A stretch of DNA of 45,930 nucleotides, taken from positions 1 through 45,930 of the forward strand of contig MFER01000016.1 in the NCBI GenBank assembly GCA_001777655.1. The letters run 5' to 3'. This stretch comes from Candidatus Doudnabacteria bacterium RIFCSPHIGHO2_02_FULL_43_13b (lineage in GTDB: Bacteria > Patescibacteriota > Doudnabacteria > UBA920 > O2-02-FULL-48-8). A program made the translations under genes and the position numbers. The notes under the pieces are model-generated. The model saw only the letters and a program-made list of their open reading frames with translations. It was not told where the DNA came from and did not search any database. Of the stretch, positions 1 through 29,732 are shown piece by piece (position 1 is the stretch's first letter; each line of letters begins with the position of its first letter).

Positions 1-2
1 GT

Positions 3-122
3 CCACCTGAGGAAGGGACGCAAGTGATACTCGAAGACGTTCACAAGAAGAGCGCCGGATGGCGCGCAGAGCAAGCTAGGTACTACAGACCCTCAGATGA
101 GGGAGGAGCAGAAGAGCAATGA
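3..122 (+). CDS. C-terminal end of a truncated upstream ORF (PPEEGTQVILEDVHKKSAGWRAEQARYYRPSDEGGAEEQ*)
   Basis: Open frame from window start to TGA at 120-122, overlapping the ATG at 119 in an ATGA junction; high GC like the following ORF. Confidence 0.5.
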   Translation, partial: PPEEGTQVILEDVHKKSAGWRAEQARYYRPSDEGGAEEQ

Positions 123-989
123 GTAACGCAGCACTGGTTCCACTCAAGGCGACCATGAGTATTCCAGACATGGTGGCCGCAATCCGCAAGCACATCACCG
201 ACGGCGGCGCGACTGTCCGTCGCTCACTCGAAAGCGTGAACCTGACGTTCTTTGTCAGGATGCGTCTGGATGAGAACCGGGTATTCGTGCTGGCCGACGA
301 GATCGAAGGCGGCCAGCGCCTGGATCCGATGGTCGTCACCATCAACAGCAACGAGCTGATCGACGGCCGGCATCGCAAGGAAGCACGAGCTCGCCAAGCG
401 CAAGGAAGGGGAGTTCATCCTGATCCCTGATCTTGATCGGCCGACGCTCATCGCACTGGCGATGACGCTGAACACTGGCGGTGCGCTGCCGCCGACCAAG
501 CGGGACATCGAGCACACAGTCGAGATGCTGCTGGGTCAGGAACTCCCGACCAAGCGTATCCTCGAGCTCATGCCGTTTCCACCGAGCATGGTGCGTAAGT
601 ACGTTCAGTCGGTGCAGTCACGACTGGCACACACCCGGCTCATGAGCGCTGCCGATGCCGTCGCCGAGTCGAAGATGACGGTGGCACAGGCCGCGAAAGA
701 GTTCGGCGTTGACGAGACGAGGCTGAAGGAGCACACCTCGGGCACGAAGCGCGGGCGGAGGAAGGGCATCGCCGAGATGAAGTCGATGCTGTCGCTCAAG
801 TACCGCGGGTACTCGGGCTCGACCGCTCACGTCTTCAAGCAGCTGTTCGAGCAGCTCGAGGACGGCGAGGTGAGCGCGAAGACAGTGAGTGATGTGGTTG
901 CCCACGTCCAGCACCTCAACAAGCGGGCGGCGCGCACGCTCAAGGGCTGGGAGGATCGCCTCAACGCGAAGATCGCCAACGGGTCCTAA
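119..989 (+). CDS. ParB/Srx-like nuclease-fold protein, split by an apparent +1 frameshift near 378-386
   Basis: Frame 2 encodes ...VVTINSNELIDGRHRKEA, a ParB-like motif; frame 3 continues HELAKRKEGEFILIPDLDRPTLIALAMTLNTGGALPPTKRDIEHTVEMLLGQ... to 989. GGAGGAG-type SD upstream of 119. Confidence 0.55.
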
Positions 990-1014
990 CGGACTCTGCG
1001 GCGTCACGTAACAC

Positions 1015-1068: not shown

Positions 1069-1647
1069 ATGCTCAATAAAATTGTTTTTGATTTGGAAAC
1101 GCAGAAATCTTTTGATGACGTGGGCGGGCGCGATCGCAATCATTTGCTGAAAGTCTCGGTGCTGGGGCTTTATTCATATCCGGAAAATAAATATTATACT
1201 TTTACTGAAGATCAGATTTATAAAGCCGCGGAAATATTCACAAACGCCGACCAGATCATCGGGTTTAATATTATCAATTTTGACTATCCAGTCCTGCAGC
1301 CATATGTGCATTTCAAACTCGCCGATTTGCCAACTTTGGATATTCTCTCAGAAGTGGAAAAATTGATTGGCCATAGAGTCAAACTGGATAATTTGGCTCA
1401 AACGACACTTAAAACGGCTAAAACAGGGGATGGCCTGTTGGCTTTGAAATATTGGAAACTAGGACAGCTTGATGAGCTGAAGAAATATTGTTTGGACGAC
1501 GTAAAAATTACCAAGGATTTGTATGATTACGTGCTCAAATACGGCAAGTTGTTGTATAAAGATTATTTTGAGACGAGAGAAATAAATATTGCTTTTCCTG
1601 AGCCAGTTGCCAGGAAATCCGTGAGTAGGCAGGCGAGCCTGTTTTGA
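1069..1647 (+). CDS. Predicted RNase H-like / DEDD 3'-5' exonuclease family protein
   Basis: N-terminal FDLET, GFNIINFDYPVL, and KYCLDDVKIT motifs typical of DEDD exonucleases. Confidence 0.65.
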   Translation: MLNKIVFDLETQKSFDDVGGRDRNHLLKVSVLGLYSYPENKYYTFTEDQIYKAAEIFTNADQIIGFNIINFDYPVLQPYVHFKLADLPTLDILSEVEKLIGHRVKLDNLAQTTLKTAKTGDGLLALKYWKLGQLDELKKYCLDDVKITKDLYDYVLKYGKLLYKDYFETREINIAFPEPVARKSVSRQASLF

Positions 1648-2110
1648 CTACGAAATACGAAATCACGAAAATACGAACTATGTTTAAACCTAACGTTTTA
1701 AAAAAAGACTTAGTTTACCCCGAACTAAGCTACACAATAGTCGGTATTTTATTTAGGGTTTATAAAGCAATAGGCGCTGGATTTGATGAAAAACATTATC
1801 AGAGAGCTGTGGCAAGAGAATTAGAAAAATCTGGCTTAAATTTTTTAGAACAAGTTAGATTACCCCTAAGTTACTCAGGTCAGAGTATAGGTTCATTTGC
1901 CTTGGATTTTCTAATAGAAGAAAAAATAATTTTAGAGATTAAAAAGGATAAAAATTTTGGCAGTAAAAATTTGGACCAAGTTTACTCCTATCTAAAAGCG
2001 ACAGGATTACAGCTTGGGATTCTTGCAAATTTCACAAAAGACGGTTTGAAGTTTAAAAGAATTGTGAATTTAAAGTCCAGTTCGTAGTTCGATTTTTCGT
2101 ATTTTCGTAG
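1648..2110. repeat. Imperfect inverted repeats flanking the GxxExxY ORF
   Basis: Left 1648-1680 CTACGAAATACGAAATCACGAAAATACGAACTA; right arm 2080-2110 reverse complement CTACGAAAATACGAAAAATCGAACTACGAAC. Confidence 0.7.
1680..2087 (+). CDS. GxxExxY family protein (PD-(D/E)XK nuclease superfamily)
   Basis: IGAGFDEKHYQRAVARELEK and DFLIEEKIILEIK motifs; the track start at 1644 is a TTG inside the left inverted-repeat arm, ATG 1680 is more likely. Confidence 0.75.
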   Translation: MFKPNVLKKDLVYPELSYTIVGILFRVYKAIGAGFDEKHYQRAVARELEKSGLNFLEQVRLPLSYSGQSIGSFALDFLIEEKIILEIKKDKNFGSKNLDQVYSYLKATGLQLGILANFTKDGLKFKRIVNLKSSS

Positions 2111-2121
2111 AAAGGCAGCTT

Positions 2122-2937
2122 ATGAGAAAGGTTTTAGTGATTCTTGGAGGAATTATAATTATCGCTGCCTTAGTTTTTTTTATTTTCGTTCCGGCATTTC
2201 AGGGAAAGCTGGTGATTGACCCGATTATCCATTTGGGACCGCTTAGTATCCGCTGGTATGGGTTGATTTTAGCTGCCAGTATATTGACGGGTTATTTTAT
2301 TATCCGGAAGAATTCCTGGAAATTTGGAATTTCCGCCAAAGACATTGATGATTTTGCGTTTTGGTTAGTGATTGTCGCTGTGGTGGGAGCCCGGATATAT
2401 TTTGTGCTATTTAATTGGGCGTATTTTTCCCAAAACCTCGCTGAGATCTATAAAATTTGGTACGGTGGCATATCGATTTATGGTTCCCTGATCGCCGGCG
2501 TTATTTTTTCCTATTTTTATACGAGGAAAGCTGCCTATAGTTTTTGGCAGTTAACTGACTTGCTTGCTTTGGGACTGCCCCTTTCGCAGGCGATTGGCAG
2601 ATTGGGCAATTTCGTCAATCAAGAAGCCTATGGAACACACACAAATTTACCTTGGAAGATGTATGTGGCTGCAAAACAAGATTACGTGCATCCCACCTTT
2701 TTGTACGAAGCAGTCGCGAATGTTTTGGTCTTTGTGGTATTGAAAAAAATGATCGGTAAATTCAAACCCGGGGTTTTAGTGTTGACATATTTTATGGCGT
2801 ATTCTGTCATCAGATTTGTTGTGGAAGGGTTGCGCACCGACAGTTTATATATTTCAATTTTTCGGGTGGATCAAATCGTCGCGGTTATAATTTTGCTCAT
2901 CTCCGGCCTACTGCTTTGGATGAGGTCCAAGCATTGA
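2122..2937 (+). CDS. lgt: Prolipoprotein diacylglyceryl transferase
   Basis: IRWYGLILAASIL, GRLGNFVNQEAYG, HPTFLYE, DQI motifs of Lgt. Confidence 0.9.
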   Translation: MRKVLVILGGIIIIAALVFFIFVPAFQGKLVIDPIIHLGPLSIRWYGLILAASILTGYFIIRKNSWKFGISAKDIDDFAFWLVIVAVVGARIYFVLFNWAYFSQNLAEIYKIWYGGISIYGSLIAGVIFSYFYTRKAAYSFWQLTDLLALGLPLSQAIGRLGNFVNQEAYGTHTNLPWKMYVAAKQDYVHPTFLYEAVANVLVFVVLKKMIGKFKPGVLVLTYFMAYSVIRFVVEGLRTDSLYISIFRVDQIVAVIILLISGLLLWMRSKH

Positions 2938-6277: not shown

Positions 6278-6284
6278 TAGGCAT

Positions 6285-6450
6285 ATGCGCTATTTAATTA
6301 CAGGTGGAGCGGGGTTCACCCAGCACCACCTGATGTTATGTCAGTTTATTTTTTAAACCTATCTTAGATGCGCTATTTAATTACAGGGGGAGCGGGGTTC
6401 ACCCAGCACCACCTGATGTTATGTCAGTTTATTTTTTAAACCTATCTTAG
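6285..6450 (+). repeat. Two tandem 83-bp units duplicating the 5' end of rfbB; each holds a 23-aa minigene (MRYLITGGAGFTQHHLMLCQFIF*)
   Basis: Units 6285-6367 and 6368-6450, nearly identical (one visible GGT/GGG change), followed by the true ATG at 6451. Confidence 0.9.
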
Positions 6451-7398
6451 ATGCGCTATTTAATTACAGGTGGTGCTGGGTTCATCGGTTCCAATTTTAT
6501 CCATTTTTTGTTTGCCAAAAATCCAGATTGTGAAATTGTCAATCTGGATAAACTGACTTATGCGGGCAATCTGGATAATTTGAAAGATATAGAAAACAAT
6601 CCGCGCTACAAGTTTGTGAAAGGGGATATTGCAGATCCCAACGCCGCAAACCTTTTAGTGGCGGATTGCGACGTGGTCGTCAACTTTGCGGCCGAAACCC
6701 ACGTGGATCGATCAATCATGGGGCCTGCTGAGTTTATCCAAACCAACGTAGTCGGCACTCAAGTATTATTAGACGCCTGCGTCAAAAACCAAAAACGGTT
6801 TCATCATATTTCTACTGATGAAGTCTTTGGGGATTTAAAGGTTGGCGGGAAAGAAAAATTTACTGAAAATACCCCGTATAACCCCTCTAGCCCTTATTCT
6901 GCCAGTAAAGCCGCTTCTGACCATCTGGTTCGCGCCTATGTTCGGACTTATGGTTTGCCGGCAACGATTTCTAACTGTTCGAATAACTATGGGTCGTATC
7001 AATATACTGAGAAATTTATTCCGTTAATGATTACGAATGCGCTCGCGAATAAAAAACTTCCAGTTTACGGTGATGGACTAAATGTCCGCGATTGGATCCA
7101 CGTCGATGATCATAATGCTGCGGTTGATTTGGTGATCCAAAAAGGGAAAATTGGTGAGACATATTTGATTGGCGGTAATAATGAAATGGCCAACATTGAT
7201 GTGGTCAAGATGATTTTGAAAATACTAGGTAAGCCGGAGAGTTTGATTGAGTTTGTAACCGACCGTAAAGGCCATGATCGGCGCTATGCGATCGATTCCA
7301 GTAAAATTGAAAGAGAATTGGGCTGGAAGCGAGAAATCGAGTTCGAAGCCGGCCTACAAAAAACTATCATTTGGTACAAAGATTTTTATAGGTTATAA
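6451..7398 (+). CDS. rfbB: dTDP-glucose 4,6-dehydratase
   Basis: MRYLITGGAGFIGSNF, AAETHVDRSI, STDEVFGD, YSASKAASDHLVRAY. Confidence 0.92.
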   Translation: MRYLITGGAGFIGSNFIHFLFAKNPDCEIVNLDKLTYAGNLDNLKDIENNPRYKFVKGDIADPNAANLLVADCDVVVNFAAETHVDRSIMGPAEFIQTNVVGTQVLLDACVKNQKRFHHISTDEVFGDLKVGGKEKFTENTPYNPSSPYSASKAASDHLVRAYVRTYGLPATISNCSNNYGSYQYTEKFIPLMITNALANKKLPVYGDGLNVRDWIHVDDHNAAVDLVIQKGKIGETYLIGGNNEMANIDVVKMILKILGKPESLIEFVTDRKGHDRRYAIDSSKIERELGWKREIEFEAGLQKTIIWYKDFYRL

Positions 7399-7416
7399 TA
7401 CTTTAACGTATTATAA
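7393..7416. promoter_or_regulatory. Palindrome TTATAATAC-tttaac-GTATTATAA upstream of the TrpR-like gene (candidate operator)
   Basis: Perfect 9-bp inverted repeat with 6-nt centre; repeated before rfbC. Confidence 0.5.
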
Positions 7417-7425
7417 GTTAAATAA

Positions 7426-7815
7426 ATGACTAAAATATCCACAAAACCTGTTCCAGAAAATCGAATGGGGCAGATGATTGATCAACTTTGGAGAGCGGTG
7501 GCAAGTCTGGAAACCAAAGACGAAGTTCATGATTTCCTGCATGATATTTTGACGCATACAGAGCTCCAAATGCTGGCCAAACGATTGCAAGTAGTCGTGA
7601 TGCTTGATGAAGGATTTAAATATGAAGAGATTAAAAAAGCGCTAAGCATTAGTGAGGCAACAATTTCGAAAATTCAAAACTGGCGACAGGCTTTTGGGAA
7701 AGGGTATAGTGTTGTGATCGAAAGACTAAAAAACAAAAAGAAAAATTATCGAAACGTAAAGTCAGGTAGGATTTACAGTAGCCGTACGGCAGCTCTAAGA
7801 ATGTGGAAAAGTTAA
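7426..7815 (+). CDS. TrpR-like (YerC/YecD family) transcriptional regulator
   Basis: LTHTELQMLAKRLQVVVMLDEGFKYEEIKKALSISEATISKIQ matches the TrpR/YerC helix-turn-helix pattern. Confidence 0.8.
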   Translation: MTKISTKPVPENRMGQMIDQLWRAVASLETKDEVHDFLHDILTHTELQMLAKRLQVVVMLDEGFKYEEIKKALSISEATISKIQNWRQAFGKGYSVVIERLKNKKKNYRNVKSGRIYSSRTAALRMWKS

Positions 7816-7835
7816 AATACTTTAACGTATTATAA
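7812..7835. promoter_or_regulatory. Second copy of palindrome, TTAAAATAC-tttaac-GTATTATAA, upstream of rfbC
   Basis: Near-identical to 7393-7416. Confidence 0.5.
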
Positions 7836-7845
7836 GTTCAGATTT

Positions 7846-8394
7846 ATGAGTCAGATCACTGAATTTAAAATTAAACAAACTGAAATCCCGGGCCTGTTAG
7901 AGATTGATATTAGTTTGATGGAAGACGAGCGCGGGTATTTTCAGGAAAAGTTTCAGAAAGAAAAGTTGGTCGCAGCCGGGTTTCCTGAAAGTTTCACGCC
8001 GGTTCAGCAAAGTGTTTCATACAATAAGGAAGTGGGCGTGACGCGGGGTTTTCACGCCGAGCCTTGGGAAAAATATATCGCGGTAATTACCGGTAAAGCT
8101 TTCGGCGCTTATCTCGACCTGCGACCTGGCCAAAATTTCGGGAAAATTGTGACAATAGAGCTTAATCCGACTAAGGCCGTTTTTCTGCCCCGTGGAGTAG
8201 CCAATGCCTTTCAAACATTGACTCCAGACGTATATTATTCCTATTTGATCAATGCTCACTGGTCTTCTCAAGCCAAATATCAATCCGTGAATTTGAAAGA
8301 TCCGGAGATTCATATTGATTGGCCGATAAATTTGGCAGAAGCAATTATTTCTGAAAAGGATTTAAACAATCCCTTCTTGAAAGATTTCCGATGA
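7846..8394 (+). CDS. rfbC: dTDP-4-dehydrorhamnose 3,5-epimerase
   Basis: MEDERGYFQEKF, QQSVSYNKEVGVTRGFHAEP, FLPRGVANAFQTL. Confidence 0.88.
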   Translation: MSQITEFKIKQTEIPGLLEIDISLMEDERGYFQEKFQKEKLVAAGFPESFTPVQQSVSYNKEVGVTRGFHAEPWEKYIAVITGKAFGAYLDLRPGQNFGKIVTIELNPTKAVFLPRGVANAFQTLTPDVYYSYLINAHWSSQAKYQSVNLKDPEIHIDWPINLAEAIISEKDLNNPFLKDFR

Positions 8395-9218
8395 AAATTT
8401 TAATTTTAGGAGCCAAAGGCAGTCTAGGGCAGACGTTTGTGGATCTTTATTCCGACCATGAAGTTTCGGCATGGGATCGGCAGGAGTTGGATATTACGGA
8501 TGAAAATCTTGCTCATGACCATATTACTGAGCTGGCTCCGAAGCTGATTATAAACTGCGCGGGTTATAATAATGTCGATCAAGCCGAAGATGAACGCGAG
8601 GCGGCGGATTCGATTAACGGTTACGCTGTCGGGTTTATCGCCAGAGCGGCGGATGAAATTGGCGCAATTTTAGTTTCTTATTCCACCGGCCAGGTATTCG
8701 ACGGCGGTAATGCTTCCGGCTATAATGAGGATGATGAGACCCGGCCAGTTAATGCTTATGGCAAATCCAAGCTTCTAGGAGAAATGGAGCTTCAGGAAAA
8801 AGCAGAGAAATATTATCTCATTCGGACTTGTTGGTTATATGGCCAGCCAGCTGCCGGAAAGAAAAGCTTCACGGATATCATGCTCGATTTGGCGGCTGGG
8901 CATCAGCCAATCAATGCCGTCACAGACGAGTTTGGCAAACCGACCTTTGTCGTCGATTTAGCTCAAGCCACTCGCGCATTGATTGAGGAGCGGAAACCAT
9001 TCGGCATATATCATTTGACGAATTCCGGGGTCGCGAGCCGCTATGATTGGGCGAAAGAAATTTTTGCGATCAAAAAAATGAAAGTGAATTTACAAGCCAT
9101 GGACGCCAGTTTTTTTGAACGAAAAGCCAAGCGGCCGAAATACGAAGTATTAAATAACACGAAATTTATCGAGCTGAGGCCTTGGACCGAAGCTTTGAAA
9201 GAATATTTAAATACATGA
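8391..9218 (+). CDS. rfbD: dTDP-4-dehydrorhamnose reductase
   Basis: ILGAKGSLGQTFVDLY, ELDITDE, STGQVFDGG, NAYGKSKLLGE. Confidence 0.88.
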   Translation: MKILILGAKGSLGQTFVDLYSDHEVSAWDRQELDITDENLAHDHITELAPKLIINCAGYNNVDQAEDEREAADSINGYAVGFIARAADEIGAILVSYSTGQVFDGGNASGYNEDDETRPVNAYGKSKLLGEMELQEKAEKYYLIRTCWLYGQPAAGKKSFTDIMLDLAAGHQPINAVTDEFGKPTFVVDLAQATRALIEERKPFGIYHLTNSGVASRYDWAKEIFAIKKMKVNLQAMDASFFERKAKRPKYEVLNNTKFIELRPWTEALKEYLNT

Positions 9219-9695
9219 TGCTAATCTGCGAATGATATGCCAATCTACGAATTGCTAATATGGAACCCTCGAATTTAGTTTATCCCAAAGAATCATATAG
9301 AGTTACCGGGGTATTATATGCAACTCATAACGAACTAGGTCGATTTTGTAACGAAAAGCAATACTGTGATCGAGTTGAGCAGATTTTTAAAGAGCTAGGT
9401 ATTAAATACGAACGAGAAAAGATTTTACCACCAAGTTTTGAAGCAGAATTACCAGGACGGAATAAAATTGATTTTATTGTGGAAGGTAAAATTATATTAG
9501 AATGCAAGGCGAAAAGAGTATTAACCCGAGAAGATTACTATCAGGCTAAACGTTATTTAAGATCGTACAATAAGAAACTTGCATTATTAGTTAACTTCCG
9601 AGATAAATATATTAGACCGAAAAGAATTTTGAATTCATTAGTGAAAGAAGATTAGCAATTCGCACAATTGGCATTAATTAGCAAATTCGCATCAT
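9215..9695. repeat. 45-nt imperfect inverted repeats exactly flanking the second GxxExxY ORF
   Basis: Left 9215-9259 versus reverse complement of 9651-9695: about 38 identities by hand alignment, no net length difference. Confidence 0.85.
9260..9655 (+). CDS. GxxExxY family protein (PD-(D/E)XK nuclease superfamily)
   Basis: YATHNELGRFCNEKQYCDRVEQIFKELGIKYERE and DFIVEGKIILECKA motifs. Confidence 0.75.
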   Translation: MEPSNLVYPKESYRVTGVLYATHNELGRFCNEKQYCDRVEQIFKELGIKYEREKILPPSFEAELPGRNKIDFIVEGKIILECKAKRVLTREDYYQAKRYLRSYNKKLALLVNFRDKYIRPKRILNSLVKED

Positions 9696-9699
9696 ACTT

Positions 9700-10458
9700 A
9701 TGAAAGGCATAATTTTAGCCGGCGGGCTAGGAACCAGACTATATCCACTCACTCATGCGACGAATAAACATTTGTTGCCGGTGTTCGACAAGCCTATGAT
9801 TTATTATCCGATCAGAACCTTGGTTCGGGCTGGGATTCGGGACATTATGGTTGTTGTTTCTGGGCCTCATTCCGGCGACTTTATCCGGGTCCTGAAAAAC
9901 GGCAAGGAATTTGGGATCAAACATTTGGAATACGCTTATCAGGACGCGCCAGACGGCGGGATTGCTGACGCGCTGGTAAAAGCCGAAAGCTTTGCTGATA
10001 ATCAACCCGTCACCGTGATCTTGGGCGATAATTGCACGGATGCGAATATCGGCAAGGAAGTCCGAAGTTTTAAGGGTGGTGCCTTGGTTTTTTTGAAGAA
10101 AGTTGATGATCCTAATCGATTCGGGATTGCAGAGTTTGACAAAAAAGACTCGAGCAAGGTTATCGGCATCGTGGAAAAACCCAAAAAACCGAAAAGTAAT
10201 TTTGCTCAGACCGGGGTTTATATTTATGATAATAAAGTATTTAATTATATAAAAAAAATTAAACCCTCGGCTCGAGGCCAGTTAGAAATCACTGATTTAA
10301 ATAATATCTATATCAATGCGAAGAAATTTAATTGGGCCGAACTGAAAGGATTTTGGTCTGATGCGGGAACTTTCGAGAGCCTTTATAAAACCAGTGTTTA
10401 TTGGGCGAGAAAAATTTTGGGTAAACGAAACGAACGGAATTTAACCAGATTTGACTAG
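9700..10458 (+). CDS. rfbA: Glucose-1-phosphate thymidylyltransferase
   Basis: MKGIILAGGLGTRLYPLTHATNKHLLPVFDKPMIYYPI. Confidence 0.9.
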   Translation: MKGIILAGGLGTRLYPLTHATNKHLLPVFDKPMIYYPIRTLVRAGIRDIMVVVSGPHSGDFIRVLKNGKEFGIKHLEYAYQDAPDGGIADALVKAESFADNQPVTVILGDNCTDANIGKEVRSFKGGALVFLKKVDDPNRFGIAEFDKKDSSKVIGIVEKPKKPKSNFAQTGVYIYDNKVFNYIKKIKPSARGQLEITDLNNIYINAKKFNWAELKGFWSDAGTFESLYKTSVYWARKILGKRNERNLTRFD

Positions 10459-13975: not shown

Positions 13976-14014
13976 AAAAAGAGGGCGGGAATTCTTGCGA
14001 ATTCCCGCCCTTTA
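13976..14014 (-). terminator. Intrinsic terminator of the minus-strand collagen-like gene
   Basis: AAGGGCGGGAATTC gcaa GAATTCCCGCCC TCTTTTTT read on the minus strand. Confidence 0.8.
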
Positions 14015-14036
14015 GTTTGGGGCGCCGCTTAAAAGC

Positions 14037-15314
14037 TTAGCGGCGACCGAAACGGTAGTTGAAGCCCATCGTGACAGCGGACAGATTCGTTCGCTCGTGC
14101 GCGGTGAACGTGTTGGGACGGGTCGAACTGATTCCCATCCAATCCAACGCCATCGTGCCATGCAGCCCTCCGACGAGCCGCACGTTGGCTTCCGCGCGGA
14201 AACCGTAGGAGCGCGCGTCTTCCTCAGGTCGGGTGACCTTTGGAAAGTCGATGCCTTGGTAGGTCTGGTGCGTCCACGCCTTACGGCGCAGAAACCCGAA
14301 TTCACCAATGGCACTGACCTCGACGCGGCCGTTGCCAGTCTGACCTCTCGCCTCCACACCGACGATTGGCCCTGCGTAGGACCGCTCAGCGTCAGTGTTG
14401 GCTCCCTGGGCGACATATTCTTCGCACAGACACAGTCGAGACCAGCCGCCGTAGCCGCCGATGGTGAGGTCTCCCAGTGAGCGTTGATAGCCGAGCTTCA
14501 CTTTCAGCAGTTCATCGCGGCTATCGTCACTGTCACGATCCTTGTCGACCCAGTTGCCAGTGATGTCCTGGAACTCCATGCCTAAGGTTGAGCCCAGGGC
14601 ATTGGACGAGACGGATCCGAACACGCCGCTGCCTGCTCGCTCGACTCGAAGGATCGGCACCACAGCTCGGAAACTGTGCTTTTGGGGCACATCTCCGGAG
14701 TTGGGTACCGGTTCCGTATAGTCGGAGCGAACGTTTCCCATCGTGACGCCAACGCCGAACGAAATCGCGAACCCACGGCCGACTTTCTTTGTCGTCCGTG
14801 TGACGGGTGCGGGAGGCGGAGGCGGGAGAGCGACGATTGCATCAGTACCCTTTGGTCCCTGCGGACCCACGGGGCCTCGTGGACCTTGAGGTCCTTGCGG
14901 ACCAGTCGGCCCTTGCGGTCCTGGCGGACCAGGGAGGGGTTTCAGTGTTGGGAATGCAACGATCTGAAACGAATCGTTGTTGCATGCCGTCATTCGTAGC
15001 GGCAATCCGGTGCCACGGTCGTAGACGAACTCTCGCCCCTTTTCGACCTTCACGAAGCCGCGCTTGCCTTCACGGTCCGGGAGGACCATATCGACGCAGC
15101 TGTCCGAGGGGAGACCACGGACGACTTCGTTGGCGGCGAGAACGCGAGTTTTGATGACACTGGGGTAGTAGAACGGCGCGTCGACGGACGCCAGACATTC
15201 CGTGCTGGTCTTCCAATGGTCGACCAGTGTCGGTGTCTGTGCCGTCGGGCTGCTGGCGCCAAGTCCAACGAGGAGTACGAACACTCCTACGAACACTCCG
15301 ATGATATTGCGCAT
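14037..15314 (-). CDS. Secreted protein with collagen-like Gly-X-Y repeats and probable C-terminal beta-barrel-like domain
   Basis: Signal-like N-terminus MRNIIGVFVGVFVLLVGLGASSPTAQT; GPPGPQGPTGPQGPQGPRGPVGPQGPKG; ends FNYRFGRR. Strong SD AAAGGAGGGG before ATG. High-GC segment (36/60 GC in line 14041). Confidence 0.75.
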   Translation of the reverse strand: MRNIIGVFVGVFVLLVGLGASSPTAQTPTLVDHWKTSTECLASVDAPFYYPSVIKTRVLAANEVVRGLPSDSCVDMVLPDREGKRGFVKVEKGREFVYDRGTGLPLRMTACNNDSFQIVAFPTLKPLPGPPGPQGPTGPQGPQGPRGPVGPQGPKGTDAIVALPPPPPAPVTRTTKKVGRGFAISFGVGVTMGNVRSDYTEPVPNSGDVPQKHSFRAVVPILRVERAGSGVFGSVSSNALGSTLGMEFQDITGNWVDKDRDSDDSRDELLKVKLGYQRSLGDLTIGGYGGWSRLCLCEEYVAQGANTDAERSYAGPIVGVEARGQTGNGRVEVSAIGEFGFLRRKAWTHQTYQGIDFPKVTRPEEDARSYGFRAEANVRLVGGLHGTMALDWMGISSTRPNTFTAHERTNLSAVTMGFNYRFGRR

Positions 15315-29451: not shown

Positions 29452-29732
29452 ATCCCGTTAGAGACAACTATATGCACTATGTATATATAATTCAAAGTCA
29501 ACGAGATAAACATTTATATACCGGATCAACGAATGATTTACGGAAACGCTTCAGTGAGCATAATAATCGAAGAGTTTTTTCTACCAAAGGTCGGGGTCCT
29601 TTTACTTTGATCTATTACGAAGCTAGTTTAAATAAACAAGATGCTCGTGCTAGGGAAAAGTATTTGAAAACAGGAATGGGCAAGCGTTATATTAAAAACA
29701 GACTGAAGCGTTTCCTGTCTCTAACGGGATGA
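29448..29732 (+). CDS. GIY-YIG nuclease superfamily protein
   Basis: YVYIIQSQRDKHLYTGSTNDLRKRFSEHN...KTGMGKRYIKNRLKRFL; core may start at the ATG at 29472. Confidence 0.88.
   Translation: MNPVRDNYMHYVYIIQSQRDKHLYTGSTNDLRKRFSEHNNRRVFSTKGRGPFTLIYYEASLNKQDARAREKYLKTGMGKRYIKNRLKRFLSLTG
29452..29730. repeat. Perfect 14-bp inverted repeats ATCCCGTTAGAGAC/GTCTCTAACGGGAT flanking the GIY-YIG ORF
   Basis: 29452-29465 and 29717-29730; flanked by direct repeat ATGAA (29448-29452, 29729-29733). Confidence 0.9.

What the first reader, a model, noticed from the sequence alone, without database searches (positions are those of the whole stretch)
9215..9695. GxxExxY nuclease-like ORF packaged in a 45-nt inverted-repeat cassette inside the rhamnose operon
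Seen: the left arm (9215-9259) ends at the base before the ATG and starts at the rfbD stop; the right arm (9651-9695) covers the ORF stop and ends just before rfbA. The two arms align as reverse complements over 45 nt (about 38 matches). In RNA this would form a long stem with the ORF as its loop, inserted between otherwise contiguous rfbD and rfbA. This resembles the architecture of 23S rRNA intervening sequences with small ORFs, but in an mRNA. Inference: a mobile or RNA-excised cassette, with the PD-(D/E)XK-family protein as candidate mobility or maintenance factor.
Basis: partly seen in the sequence, partly recalled or inferred. Interest (0 to 1): 0.85.

Follow-up and report, generated by a model that had tools for sequence, protein, structure and literature searches.

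The report
Jumping nuclease gene framed by arrays
A small nuclease gene wedged into a sugar-synthesis operon of an ultra-small (Patescibacteria/CPR) bacterium is one copy of a widespread, apparently undescribed mobile cassette, whose two ends are mirror-image arrays of a short repeated DNA word that changes in step with the nuclease, which suggests that the nuclease recognises its own ends.

Summary
Observation confirmed: arms 9215-9259 / 9651-9695 align with 38/46 identical positions; 0 of 5000 dinucleotide shuffles reach that score. The window holds a second GxxExxY cassette (1648-2110) with different arms. In 151 GxxExxY loci, 87% have such arms; other genes in the same loci reach that score only when they are cassettes or lie beside one. 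Each arm is an array of about 4-5 copies of a 7-nt unit (general form RCNRA-like; TRCNAAT here) pointing inward from both sides. The unit 'flavour' is cassette-specific and follows the protein phylogeny (Mantel r 0.50, permutation maximum 0.13). Mobility is supported by empty sites at exonuclease-lgt, inside LepA and inside RecG, by close relatives at unrelated housekeeping junctions, and by ORF-less mini-elements. The RNA-excision idea is not supported: no GU bias, no pair-by-pair compensation at the variable unit position, fold z-score only -1.33. Best reading: a single-gene mobile DNA cassette, RAYT/REPIN-like in organisation but built on a PD-(D/E)XK (RecB/Cas4-like) nuclease that probably recognises its terminal arrays. 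The same layout frames 23S-IVP four-helix-bundle genes. Catalysis of mobility is inferred, not shown.

The parts
9215..9259 (+). cassette 1, left arm: inward array of TRCNAAT units (TGCTAAT, TGCGAAT, TGCCAAT, TACGAAT, TGCTAAT)
9260..9655 (+). GxxExxY ORF, 131 aa, PF13366/TIGR04256, PD-(D/E)XK core (E32, D71, E81, K83, Q95, Y99) present
9651..9695 (-). cassette 1, right arm: inverted array of the same unit (on the - strand TGCGAAT, TGCTAAT, TGCCAAT, TGCGAAT, TGCTAAT); overlaps the ORF stop
1648..1679 (+). cassette 2, left arm: four TACGAA-type units, starting directly after the upstream stop
1680..2087 (+). second GxxExxY ORF (the frame is open from a TTG at 1644), HMM E 7.9e-32
2079..2110 (-). 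cassette 2, right arm: inverted TACGAA-type units
8391..9218 (+). rmlD (rfbD), upstream neighbour of cassette 1
9700..10458 (+). rmlA (rfbA), downstream neighbour of cassette 1
1069..1647 (+). ORF upstream of cassette 2 (looks like a DEDD-type 3'-5' exonuclease, from its sequence); directly followed by lgt in 8 of the 10 closest relatives (empty site)
2122..2937 (+). lgt-like prolipoprotein diacylglyceryl transferase (named from its sequence), downstream neighbour of cassette 2

Best explanation
Window 9215-9695 is a single-gene mobile DNA cassette. SHOWN: it and its relatives come and go at defined sites (gene junctions, and in frame inside LepA and RecG), almost always in the sense direction, without a detectable target-site duplication. 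The ORF lies between two inverted arrays of about 4-5 short units whose flavour is shared by both arms and follows the protein's phylogeny. ORF-less mini-elements made of the same arrays exist. INFERRED: the encoded PD-(D/E)XK (RecB/Cas4-like) nuclease binds the unit arrays at both ends, in cis for its own cassette and in trans for mini-elements of the same flavour, and cuts or processes DNA there to start transposition or recombination-driven copying into a new site. Insertion without a duplication points to a cut-and-repair or single-strand route rather than a DDE-type staggered insertion. Sense insertions between co-transcribed genes are the ones that survive, because the promoter-less ORF is then expressed from the host operon and does least harm.
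For: Arms at 87% of 151 loci; background among other genes in the same loci is explained by further cassettes. Unit density 3.15 per 100 nt on the inward strand of the left flank and 2.9 on the inward strand of the right flank, against about 0.5-0.7 on the other strand and far away. Arm flavour against protein distance: Mantel r 0.50, permutation maximum 0.13 of 2000. Empty sites: exonuclease-lgt gap of 1-15 nt in 8 of the 10 closest relatives; LepA loop without the ORF in 27 of 30 listed genomes, filled in 3; RecG loop without it in most genomes, filled in G029, G039 and G035. Closest relatives sit at polA-ppa, pgk-DHH and prfA-ABC junctions, and upstream of a class I tRNA synthetase and of a cpn60 gene. 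Mini-elements, mostly flavour-matched to a cassette of the same locus or genome; none found in 360 kb of G004, which lacks the family. Invariant E32, D71, K83, Q95, Y99, R122, near-invariant E81; model pLDDT 91.8 with lambda exonuclease and Cas4 as best, though weak, fold matches.
Against: No transposition, binding or cleavage has been observed. No pair of near-identical cassettes at two sites of one genome was found. The window's own rmlD-rmlA site has no clean empty counterpart: G004 carries a different 89-aa ORF there. The nuclease family also occurs without arms: domesticated-looking LepA copies with a decayed right arm, L055 and L032, and two of three non-CPR plasmid copies. The correlation of flavour with protein may be plain co-inheritance rather than recognition. 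Mirrored unit position 1 does match more than shuffles (248 against 224 +/- 4.6), so some arm-to-arm constraint is not excluded. Fold matches stay above E = 1e-3.
Confidence: 0.6

Rival explanations
1. RNA-level intervening sequence: the arms pair in the polycistronic mRNA, RNase III (or the encoded nuclease) cuts the stem and releases the ORF, as for 23S rRNA IVS.
For: The arms do pair in the predicted RNA fold, with an arm:arm duplex of -38.9 kcal/mol. Orientation is almost always sense (114 against 4). IVP genes, the classic IVS ORF, have the same layout in these genomes. [quoted passage not shown]
Against: No GU bias in mismatches (91 against 112; 36 against 43). No pair-by-pair compensation at the variable unit base. 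z-score only -1.33. Cutting would sever essential mRNAs where the cassette is in frame in lepA or recG, and there the reading frame is kept open through the whole insert. No ligation machinery is suggested.
Confidence: 0.12
2. Homing-type selfish gene: the nuclease cuts cassette-free alleles and the cassette is copied in by homologous repair; the arms are not its target but by-products, for example boundary or insulator sequence.
For: Small free-standing nuclease, patchy distribution (50 of 294 Patescibacteria genomes), the same site filled in several relatives (LepA in G002, G003, G005).
Against: Insertion sites are unrelated in sequence; flanks show no shared consensus; homing does not explain ORF-less mini-elements or the flavour-protein correlation.
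Confidence: 0.1
3. Host-beneficial or autoregulated nuclease (for example defence or repair) whose arms are operator or translational control sites; apparent mobility is ordinary gene gain and loss.
For: Arms touch the start and stop codons and the neighbouring genes' stop and start; inward arrays could serve as operators on both sides; unit flavour co-varies with the protein.
Against: No PADLOC match; arms exist without any ORF and in frame inside LepA loops of other genomes; insertion into essential genes is hard to see as regulation.
Confidence: 0.13
4. Artefact: AT-rich low-complexity spacers that look complementary by chance, or assembly error.
For: The arms are AT-rich and the sources are mostly metagenome-assembled genomes.
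Against: 0 of 5000 dinucleotide shuffles reach either window cassette; the pattern recurs in 151 loci of many independent CPR assemblies; GIY-YIG ORFs in the same genomes mostly lack it (13% at score 34 or more).
Confidence: 0.02

Closest known systems
RAYT / REPIN (REP-associated tyrosine transposase with REP doublets; PMC3116915)
   Same: A small nuclease-type gene with cognate palindromic repeats beside it; ORF-less inverted doublets scattered in the genome; distinct 'flavours' matched to distinct gene copies; short extragenic sites.
   Different: RAYTs are Y1 (IS200-like) tyrosine enzymes, here a PD-(D/E)XK nuclease; REPs are about 16-25-nt palindromes, here each arm is an array of 4-5 degenerate 7-nt units without internal palindrome; RAYTs are described as single-copy and not self-moving, here the ORF with its arms occupies many sites.
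23S rRNA intervening sequences with S23/IVP ORF (Coxiella, Leptospira, Salmonella; PMC4990558)
   Same: ORF of about 130 codons between two inverted arms; insertion into transcribed regions; sense orientation; IVP proteins in these very genomes have the same kind of cassette.
   Different: Host site is mRNA operons and protein genes, not 23S rRNA; unrelated protein fold; no sign that base pairing is selected; no evidence of RNase III excision.
Insertion sequences and MITEs
   Same: Gene framed by terminal inverted repeats plus ORF-less derivatives of the same ends.
   Different: No DDE, HUH or serine/tyrosine transposase; no target-site duplication detectable; ends are inverted arrays of short units; almost always sense orientation.
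Homing endonuclease genes, including PD-(D/E)XK homing nucleases
   Same: Compact nuclease ORF, patchy distribution, insertion into conserved genes.
   Different: No intron or intein around it; sites differ in sequence; the arms are part of the unit.
Rickettsia palindromic elements (RPE)
   Same: Short inverted-repeat elements inserted in frame in protein genes (like the ORF-less arrays in the LepA loop). Known from general knowledge, not tested here.
   Different: RPEs carry no nuclease ORF.

Membership tests
GxxExxY / PDDEXK_3 (TIGR04256, PF13366) | Profile match above the curated cut-off | tested here: met
   PF13366 72 bits (cut-off 22); TIGR04256 70.8 bits (cut-off 35)
PD-(D/E)XK nuclease superfamily (RecB/Cas4-like) | D...ExK plus QxxxY motif and core fold | tested here: met
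   D71, E81, K83, Q95, Y99 invariant or nearly so in 57 sequences; model pLDDT 91.8 with lambda exonuclease and Cas4 as best fold matches, though at E 8e-3 and above
PD-(D/E)XK nuclease superfamily (RecB/Cas4-like) | Nuclease activity | not testable with these tools
   needs purified protein
23S rRNA IVS | Located in 23S rRNA | tested here: not met
   between rmlD and rmlA; relatives at other protein-gene junctions
23S rRNA IVS | Encodes an S23/IVP four-helix bundle protein | tested here: not met
   PF13366, no PF05635 match
23S rRNA IVS | Arms form a stem conserved by base pairing and cut by RNase III | tested here: inconclusive
   pairing is possible but there is no covariation or GU signal; cleavage not testable
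RAYT/REPIN | Y1/HUH tyrosine transposase | tested here: not met
   PD-(D/E)XK fold
RAYT/REPIN | Gene framed by inverted repeats, with ORF-less inverted doublets of the same flavour elsewhere | tested here: met
Insertion sequence (DDE type) | Transposase domain | tested here: not met
   only PDDEXK_3 found
Insertion sequence (DDE type) | Target-site duplication | tested here: not met
   longest common substring of outer flanks 3.81 own against 3.77 mispaired over 129 cassettes
Mobile element (general) | Filled and empty alleles of one site; same element at unrelated sites | tested here: met
Anti-phage defence protein | Match in PADLOC-DB | tested here: not met

The most novel reading that the evidence does not exclude
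A new class of minimal mobile genetic elements, widespread in Patescibacteria: inverted arrays of a degenerate 7-nt recognition unit form the ends, the occupant is an interchangeable small protein (a PD-(D/E)XK nuclease, or an unrelated four-helix-bundle IVP), ORF-less forms are moved in trans, and the classic 23S rRNA IVS would be a relative of this class that settled in rRNA. Insertion into gene junctions and, in frame, into loops of essential proteins would be by a mechanism not yet known for any transposon.
Probability: 0.35. Interest if true: 0.92.

Novelty: new variant of a known kind. Interest (0 to 1): 0.8.

Why it matters
GxxExxY proteins are abundant and, as far as the searched library shows, have no assigned role: two papers in 5.4 million open-access texts name them, neither with a function, and none was found that links them to inverted repeats. 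The finding gives them a concrete, testable one: a self-framed mobile cassette with a readable recognition code, since arm flavour changes with the protein. It would explain in-frame insertions in LepA and RecG and much of the strange inverted intergenic sequence in CPR genomes, and it offers a route to the long-open question of where 23S rRNA intervening sequences come from and how they move, because IVP genes use the same layout. A compact nuclease with variable, array-based end recognition could also be of practical use if activity is confirmed.

Tried and rejected
RNA stem as selected feature: tested by strand-specific wobble counts, unit-level mirror matching and folding; not supported. 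Target-site duplication: none. Clean empty site at rmlD-rmlA: the nearest syntenic genome G004 has another small membrane-protein-like ORF there, so the site is cassette-free but not a simple junction. GIY-YIG ORFs as a third cassette type: only 4 of 30 reach score 34 and several share one fixed short inverted repeat instead, so they serve as a contrast. Ungapped inverted-repeat scan of the window missed both cassettes because of small gaps. Rfam: no match in the window. PADLOC: none. PDB sequence search: only sub-threshold T7 endonuclease I and Cas4. Search of other phyla by genome sampling was not possible; only three plasmid copies could be tested, one with an inverted repeat. Literature searches on inverted repeats with GxxExxY or IVP, and on arm strings themselves, found no prior description; subscription papers and preprints are mostly not covered.

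Full report
1. The observation. The inverted arms at 9215-9259 and 9651-9695 are present as described: 73% complementary without gaps and 38 of 46 columns identical with small gaps. The alignment score is 54, against a shuffle mean of 18.1, sd 3.3 and maximum 46; none of 5000 dinucleotide shuffles reaches it. The left arm starts one base before the rmlD stop codon and ends at the base before the ORF's ATG. The right arm overlaps the ORF stop and ends 4 nt before rmlA. The ORF belongs to PF13366 / TIGR04256.

2. It is a rule, not a single case. A search of 41 related genomes gave GxxExxY genes in 26. Of the loci read, nearly all have arms directly at the ends of the ORF (median score 38 against 17 for arms paired with those of another locus). 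A search of public genomes with the window's subfamily gave 80 loci, nearly all Patescibacteria/CPR (Doudna-, Roizman-, Staskawicz-, Sung-, Falkow-, Magasanik-, Giovannonibacteria and others; the nearest ones are Doudnabacteria), with the same layout. Over 151 loci, 87% have arms at score 34 or more. Of 66 other genes in the same loci 12 reach it, and on inspection these are themselves cassettes (five GxxExxY, four IVP, one GIY-YIG) or lie next to one. Fourteen of 17 loci from elsewhere in the phylum also have arms. GIY-YIG nuclease ORFs of the same genomes serve as contrast: 13%.

3. Anatomy of the arms. Each arm is an array of about 4-5 short units. In the window's subfamily the unit is TRCNAAT; elsewhere TACGAAa, TACTAAa, TACGGAt, CGCGGAT, CACAGAT and so on, all of a general RCNRA-like form. 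Units point inward on both sides: 3.15 per 100 nt on the sense strand of the left flank and 2.9 on the antisense strand of the right flank, against 0.5-0.7 on the other strands and in distant DNA. Both arms of one cassette share a flavour, and flavour follows the protein: Mantel r 0.50 over 130 cassettes, permutation maximum 0.13 in 2000. This holds across different genomic sites, so the arms travel with the ORF.

4. Stem or recognition arrays? Three tests were made for selection on RNA pairing. (a) Mismatches between arms that would be GU pairs in the transcript number 91 (GxxExxY) and 36 (IVP); those that would be GU only in the opposite strand number 112 and 43. No sense-strand excess. (b) In 296 mirrored unit pairs the variable base N agrees in 164, against 167 +/- 5 when units are permuted within the cassette, although both are far above the 95 expected over all cassettes. 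So similarity of the arms comes from shared flavour rather than from base-by-base compensation. One caution: unit position 1 (A or G) agrees in 248 against 224 +/- 4.6, so a mirrored order of unit types is present. (c) The RNA fold of the cassette pairs the arms but is not unusual, z -1.33, 9 of 100 shuffles as good. The data fit inverted arrays of a recognition unit better than a conserved stem; they do not exclude that a hairpin also forms.

5. Mobility. Cassette 2 has a clean empty site: in 8 of the 10 closest relatives the upstream ORF and lgt are 1-15 nt apart; the window has 474 nt there. In G002, G003 and G005 a GxxExxY ORF lies in frame inside LepA, between QPVRM and the LIDTPGH motif, where 27 of the 30 listed genomes have no ORF. 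In G029, G035 and G039 it lies in frame inside RecG between the DEQHRFG and ATPIP motifs, where most listed genomes are empty. Left arms in these are readable units (CGCAGAC and similar); in LepA the right arm has decayed in part. The closest relatives of the window cassette sit at polA-ppa, pgk-DHH and prfA-ABC junctions, and upstream of a class I tRNA synthetase and of a cpn60 gene. For rmlD-rmlA itself the best comparison, G004, lacks the cassette but has an unrelated 89-aa ORF. Orientation: both neighbours are on the ORF's strand in 114 cases, both opposite in 4. Outer flanks show no target-site duplication.

6. Mini-elements. A scan for array, short spacer, inverted array finds ORF-less copies with loops of 4-50 nt, often with the flavour of a full cassette in the same locus or genome, for example in L042, L098, L149, L200, L227, L230 and L261. 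In 394 kb of G039, which has 12 GxxExxY matches, there are 33 arrays (2 in a shuffle) and 5 mini-elements; in 360 kb of G004, which has neither GxxExxY nor IVP genes, 1 array and no mini-element. The window's own genome has one between a nusB-like gene and an HU-like gene. ORF-less inverted arrays also sit in the LepA loop of G023, G033, G034, G038 and G040 (read); that of G033 resembles the arms of an IVP cassette in the same genome.

7. The same layout with another protein. The window's genome has six PF05635 (23S rRNA IVP, four-helix bundle) matches. Five of them lie between inverted arms next to neighbouring genes; the weakest does not. In 33 measured loci of relatives and the own genome the median score is 38 against 20 mispaired, and the units tend to have an exact period of 7.

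8. The protein. Alignment of 57 sequences keeps E32, D71, K83, Q95, Y99 and R122 without exception and E81 almost so, the D-ExK-QxxxY pattern of RecB/Cas4-type PD-(D/E)XK nucleases. The AlphaFold2 model has pLDDT 91.8. The best PDB fold matches are lambda exonuclease and Cas4 SSO0001, at E 8e-3 to 4e-2. These matches are weak but agree with the motifs.

9. Mechanism. Shown: a mobile unit with inverted unit arrays, strong sense bias, no target-site duplication, flavour following the protein, ORF-less derivatives. Inferred: the protein binds its arrays and cuts there; mini-elements are moved in trans; sense insertions survive because the ORF depends on the host operon and antisense copies would be silent or harmful. 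Not shown: binding, cutting, movement. My confidence is about 0.9 that this is a mobile cassette, about 0.65 that the protein recognises the arms, about 0.5 that it drives mobility; 0.6 for the statement as a whole.

10. Comparison with the known. It works most like RAYT/REPIN (PMC3116915): a small nuclease-type gene with matching inverted repeats and ORF-less doublets in matched flavours. It is not a member, since the enzyme is not a Y1 transposase and the repeats differ. It is not an rRNA IVS, not a DDE insertion sequence, and not an intron- or intein-borne homing gene. No earlier description was found in the open-access library; work outside that library could exist. The choice of 'new variant of a known kind' is conservative, because the mechanism is open.

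11. Limits. Most genomes are metagenome assemblies. Gene borders come from a simple ORF caller. The unit pattern was defined on these data, so its density is partly by construction; the strand asymmetry and the mirror test are not. The Mantel test does not separate co-inheritance from recognition. Only three non-CPR copies could be read.

Noticed in passing
window 7396-7419 and 7815-7838: A TrpR-like ORF (7426-7815, PF01371) between rmlB and rmlC is framed by two near-identical palindromic repeats in direct orientation (AATACTTTAACGTATTATAAGTT), possibly autoregulatory operators.
   Followed up: no
window 6284-6450: Two tandem copies of about 84 nt just before rmlB, each starting like the rmlB start (ATGCGCTATTTAATTACAGGTGGAGCGGGGTTCA) and followed by the same unrelated tail: truncated tandem duplications of the gene start or an assembly oddity.
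   Followed up: no
window 29453-29467 and 29716-29730: A GIY-YIG ORF (HMM match 29472-29675) is framed by a perfect 15-nt inverted repeat ATCCCGTTAGAGACA; the same or nearly the same short repeat frames GIY-YIG ORFs in G002 and G017 (L399, L388). A different, fixed-sequence framing, unlike the cassette-specific arrays.
   Followed up: partly
window 1-1000 and 14001-15000: G+C 61% and 60% in a genome stretch otherwise near 43%; the second holds a collagen-like GPPGPQGP repeat ORF (14037-15314, minus). Foreign or chimeric sequence possible.
   Followed up: no
L156, L158, L160, L162, L163 (LepA loop in G023, G040, G034, G038, G033): The loop between QPVRM and the LIDTPGH motif of LepA is a hot spot for in-frame ORF-less inverted arrays as well as full GxxExxY cassettes.
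   Followed up: partly
L004, L005, L007 (own genome IVP loci): Some IVP ORFs in the cassettes are broken by stop codons (L004, L005) or truncated (L007) while their arms are still recognisable, so arms outlast the ORF.
   Followed up: partly
G004 (964 kb single contig): A close relative with no GxxExxY and no IVP gene at all, useful as a cassette-free reference genome.
   Followed up: yes
L369 (Gemmatirosa kalamazoonensis plasmid), about 1383-1455 and its mirror downstream of the ORF: A GxxExxY copy outside CPR with a long inverted repeat (54/78 aligned; score 51 against shuffle maximum 36) of another sequence type; the layout may reach beyond CPR.
   Followed up: no
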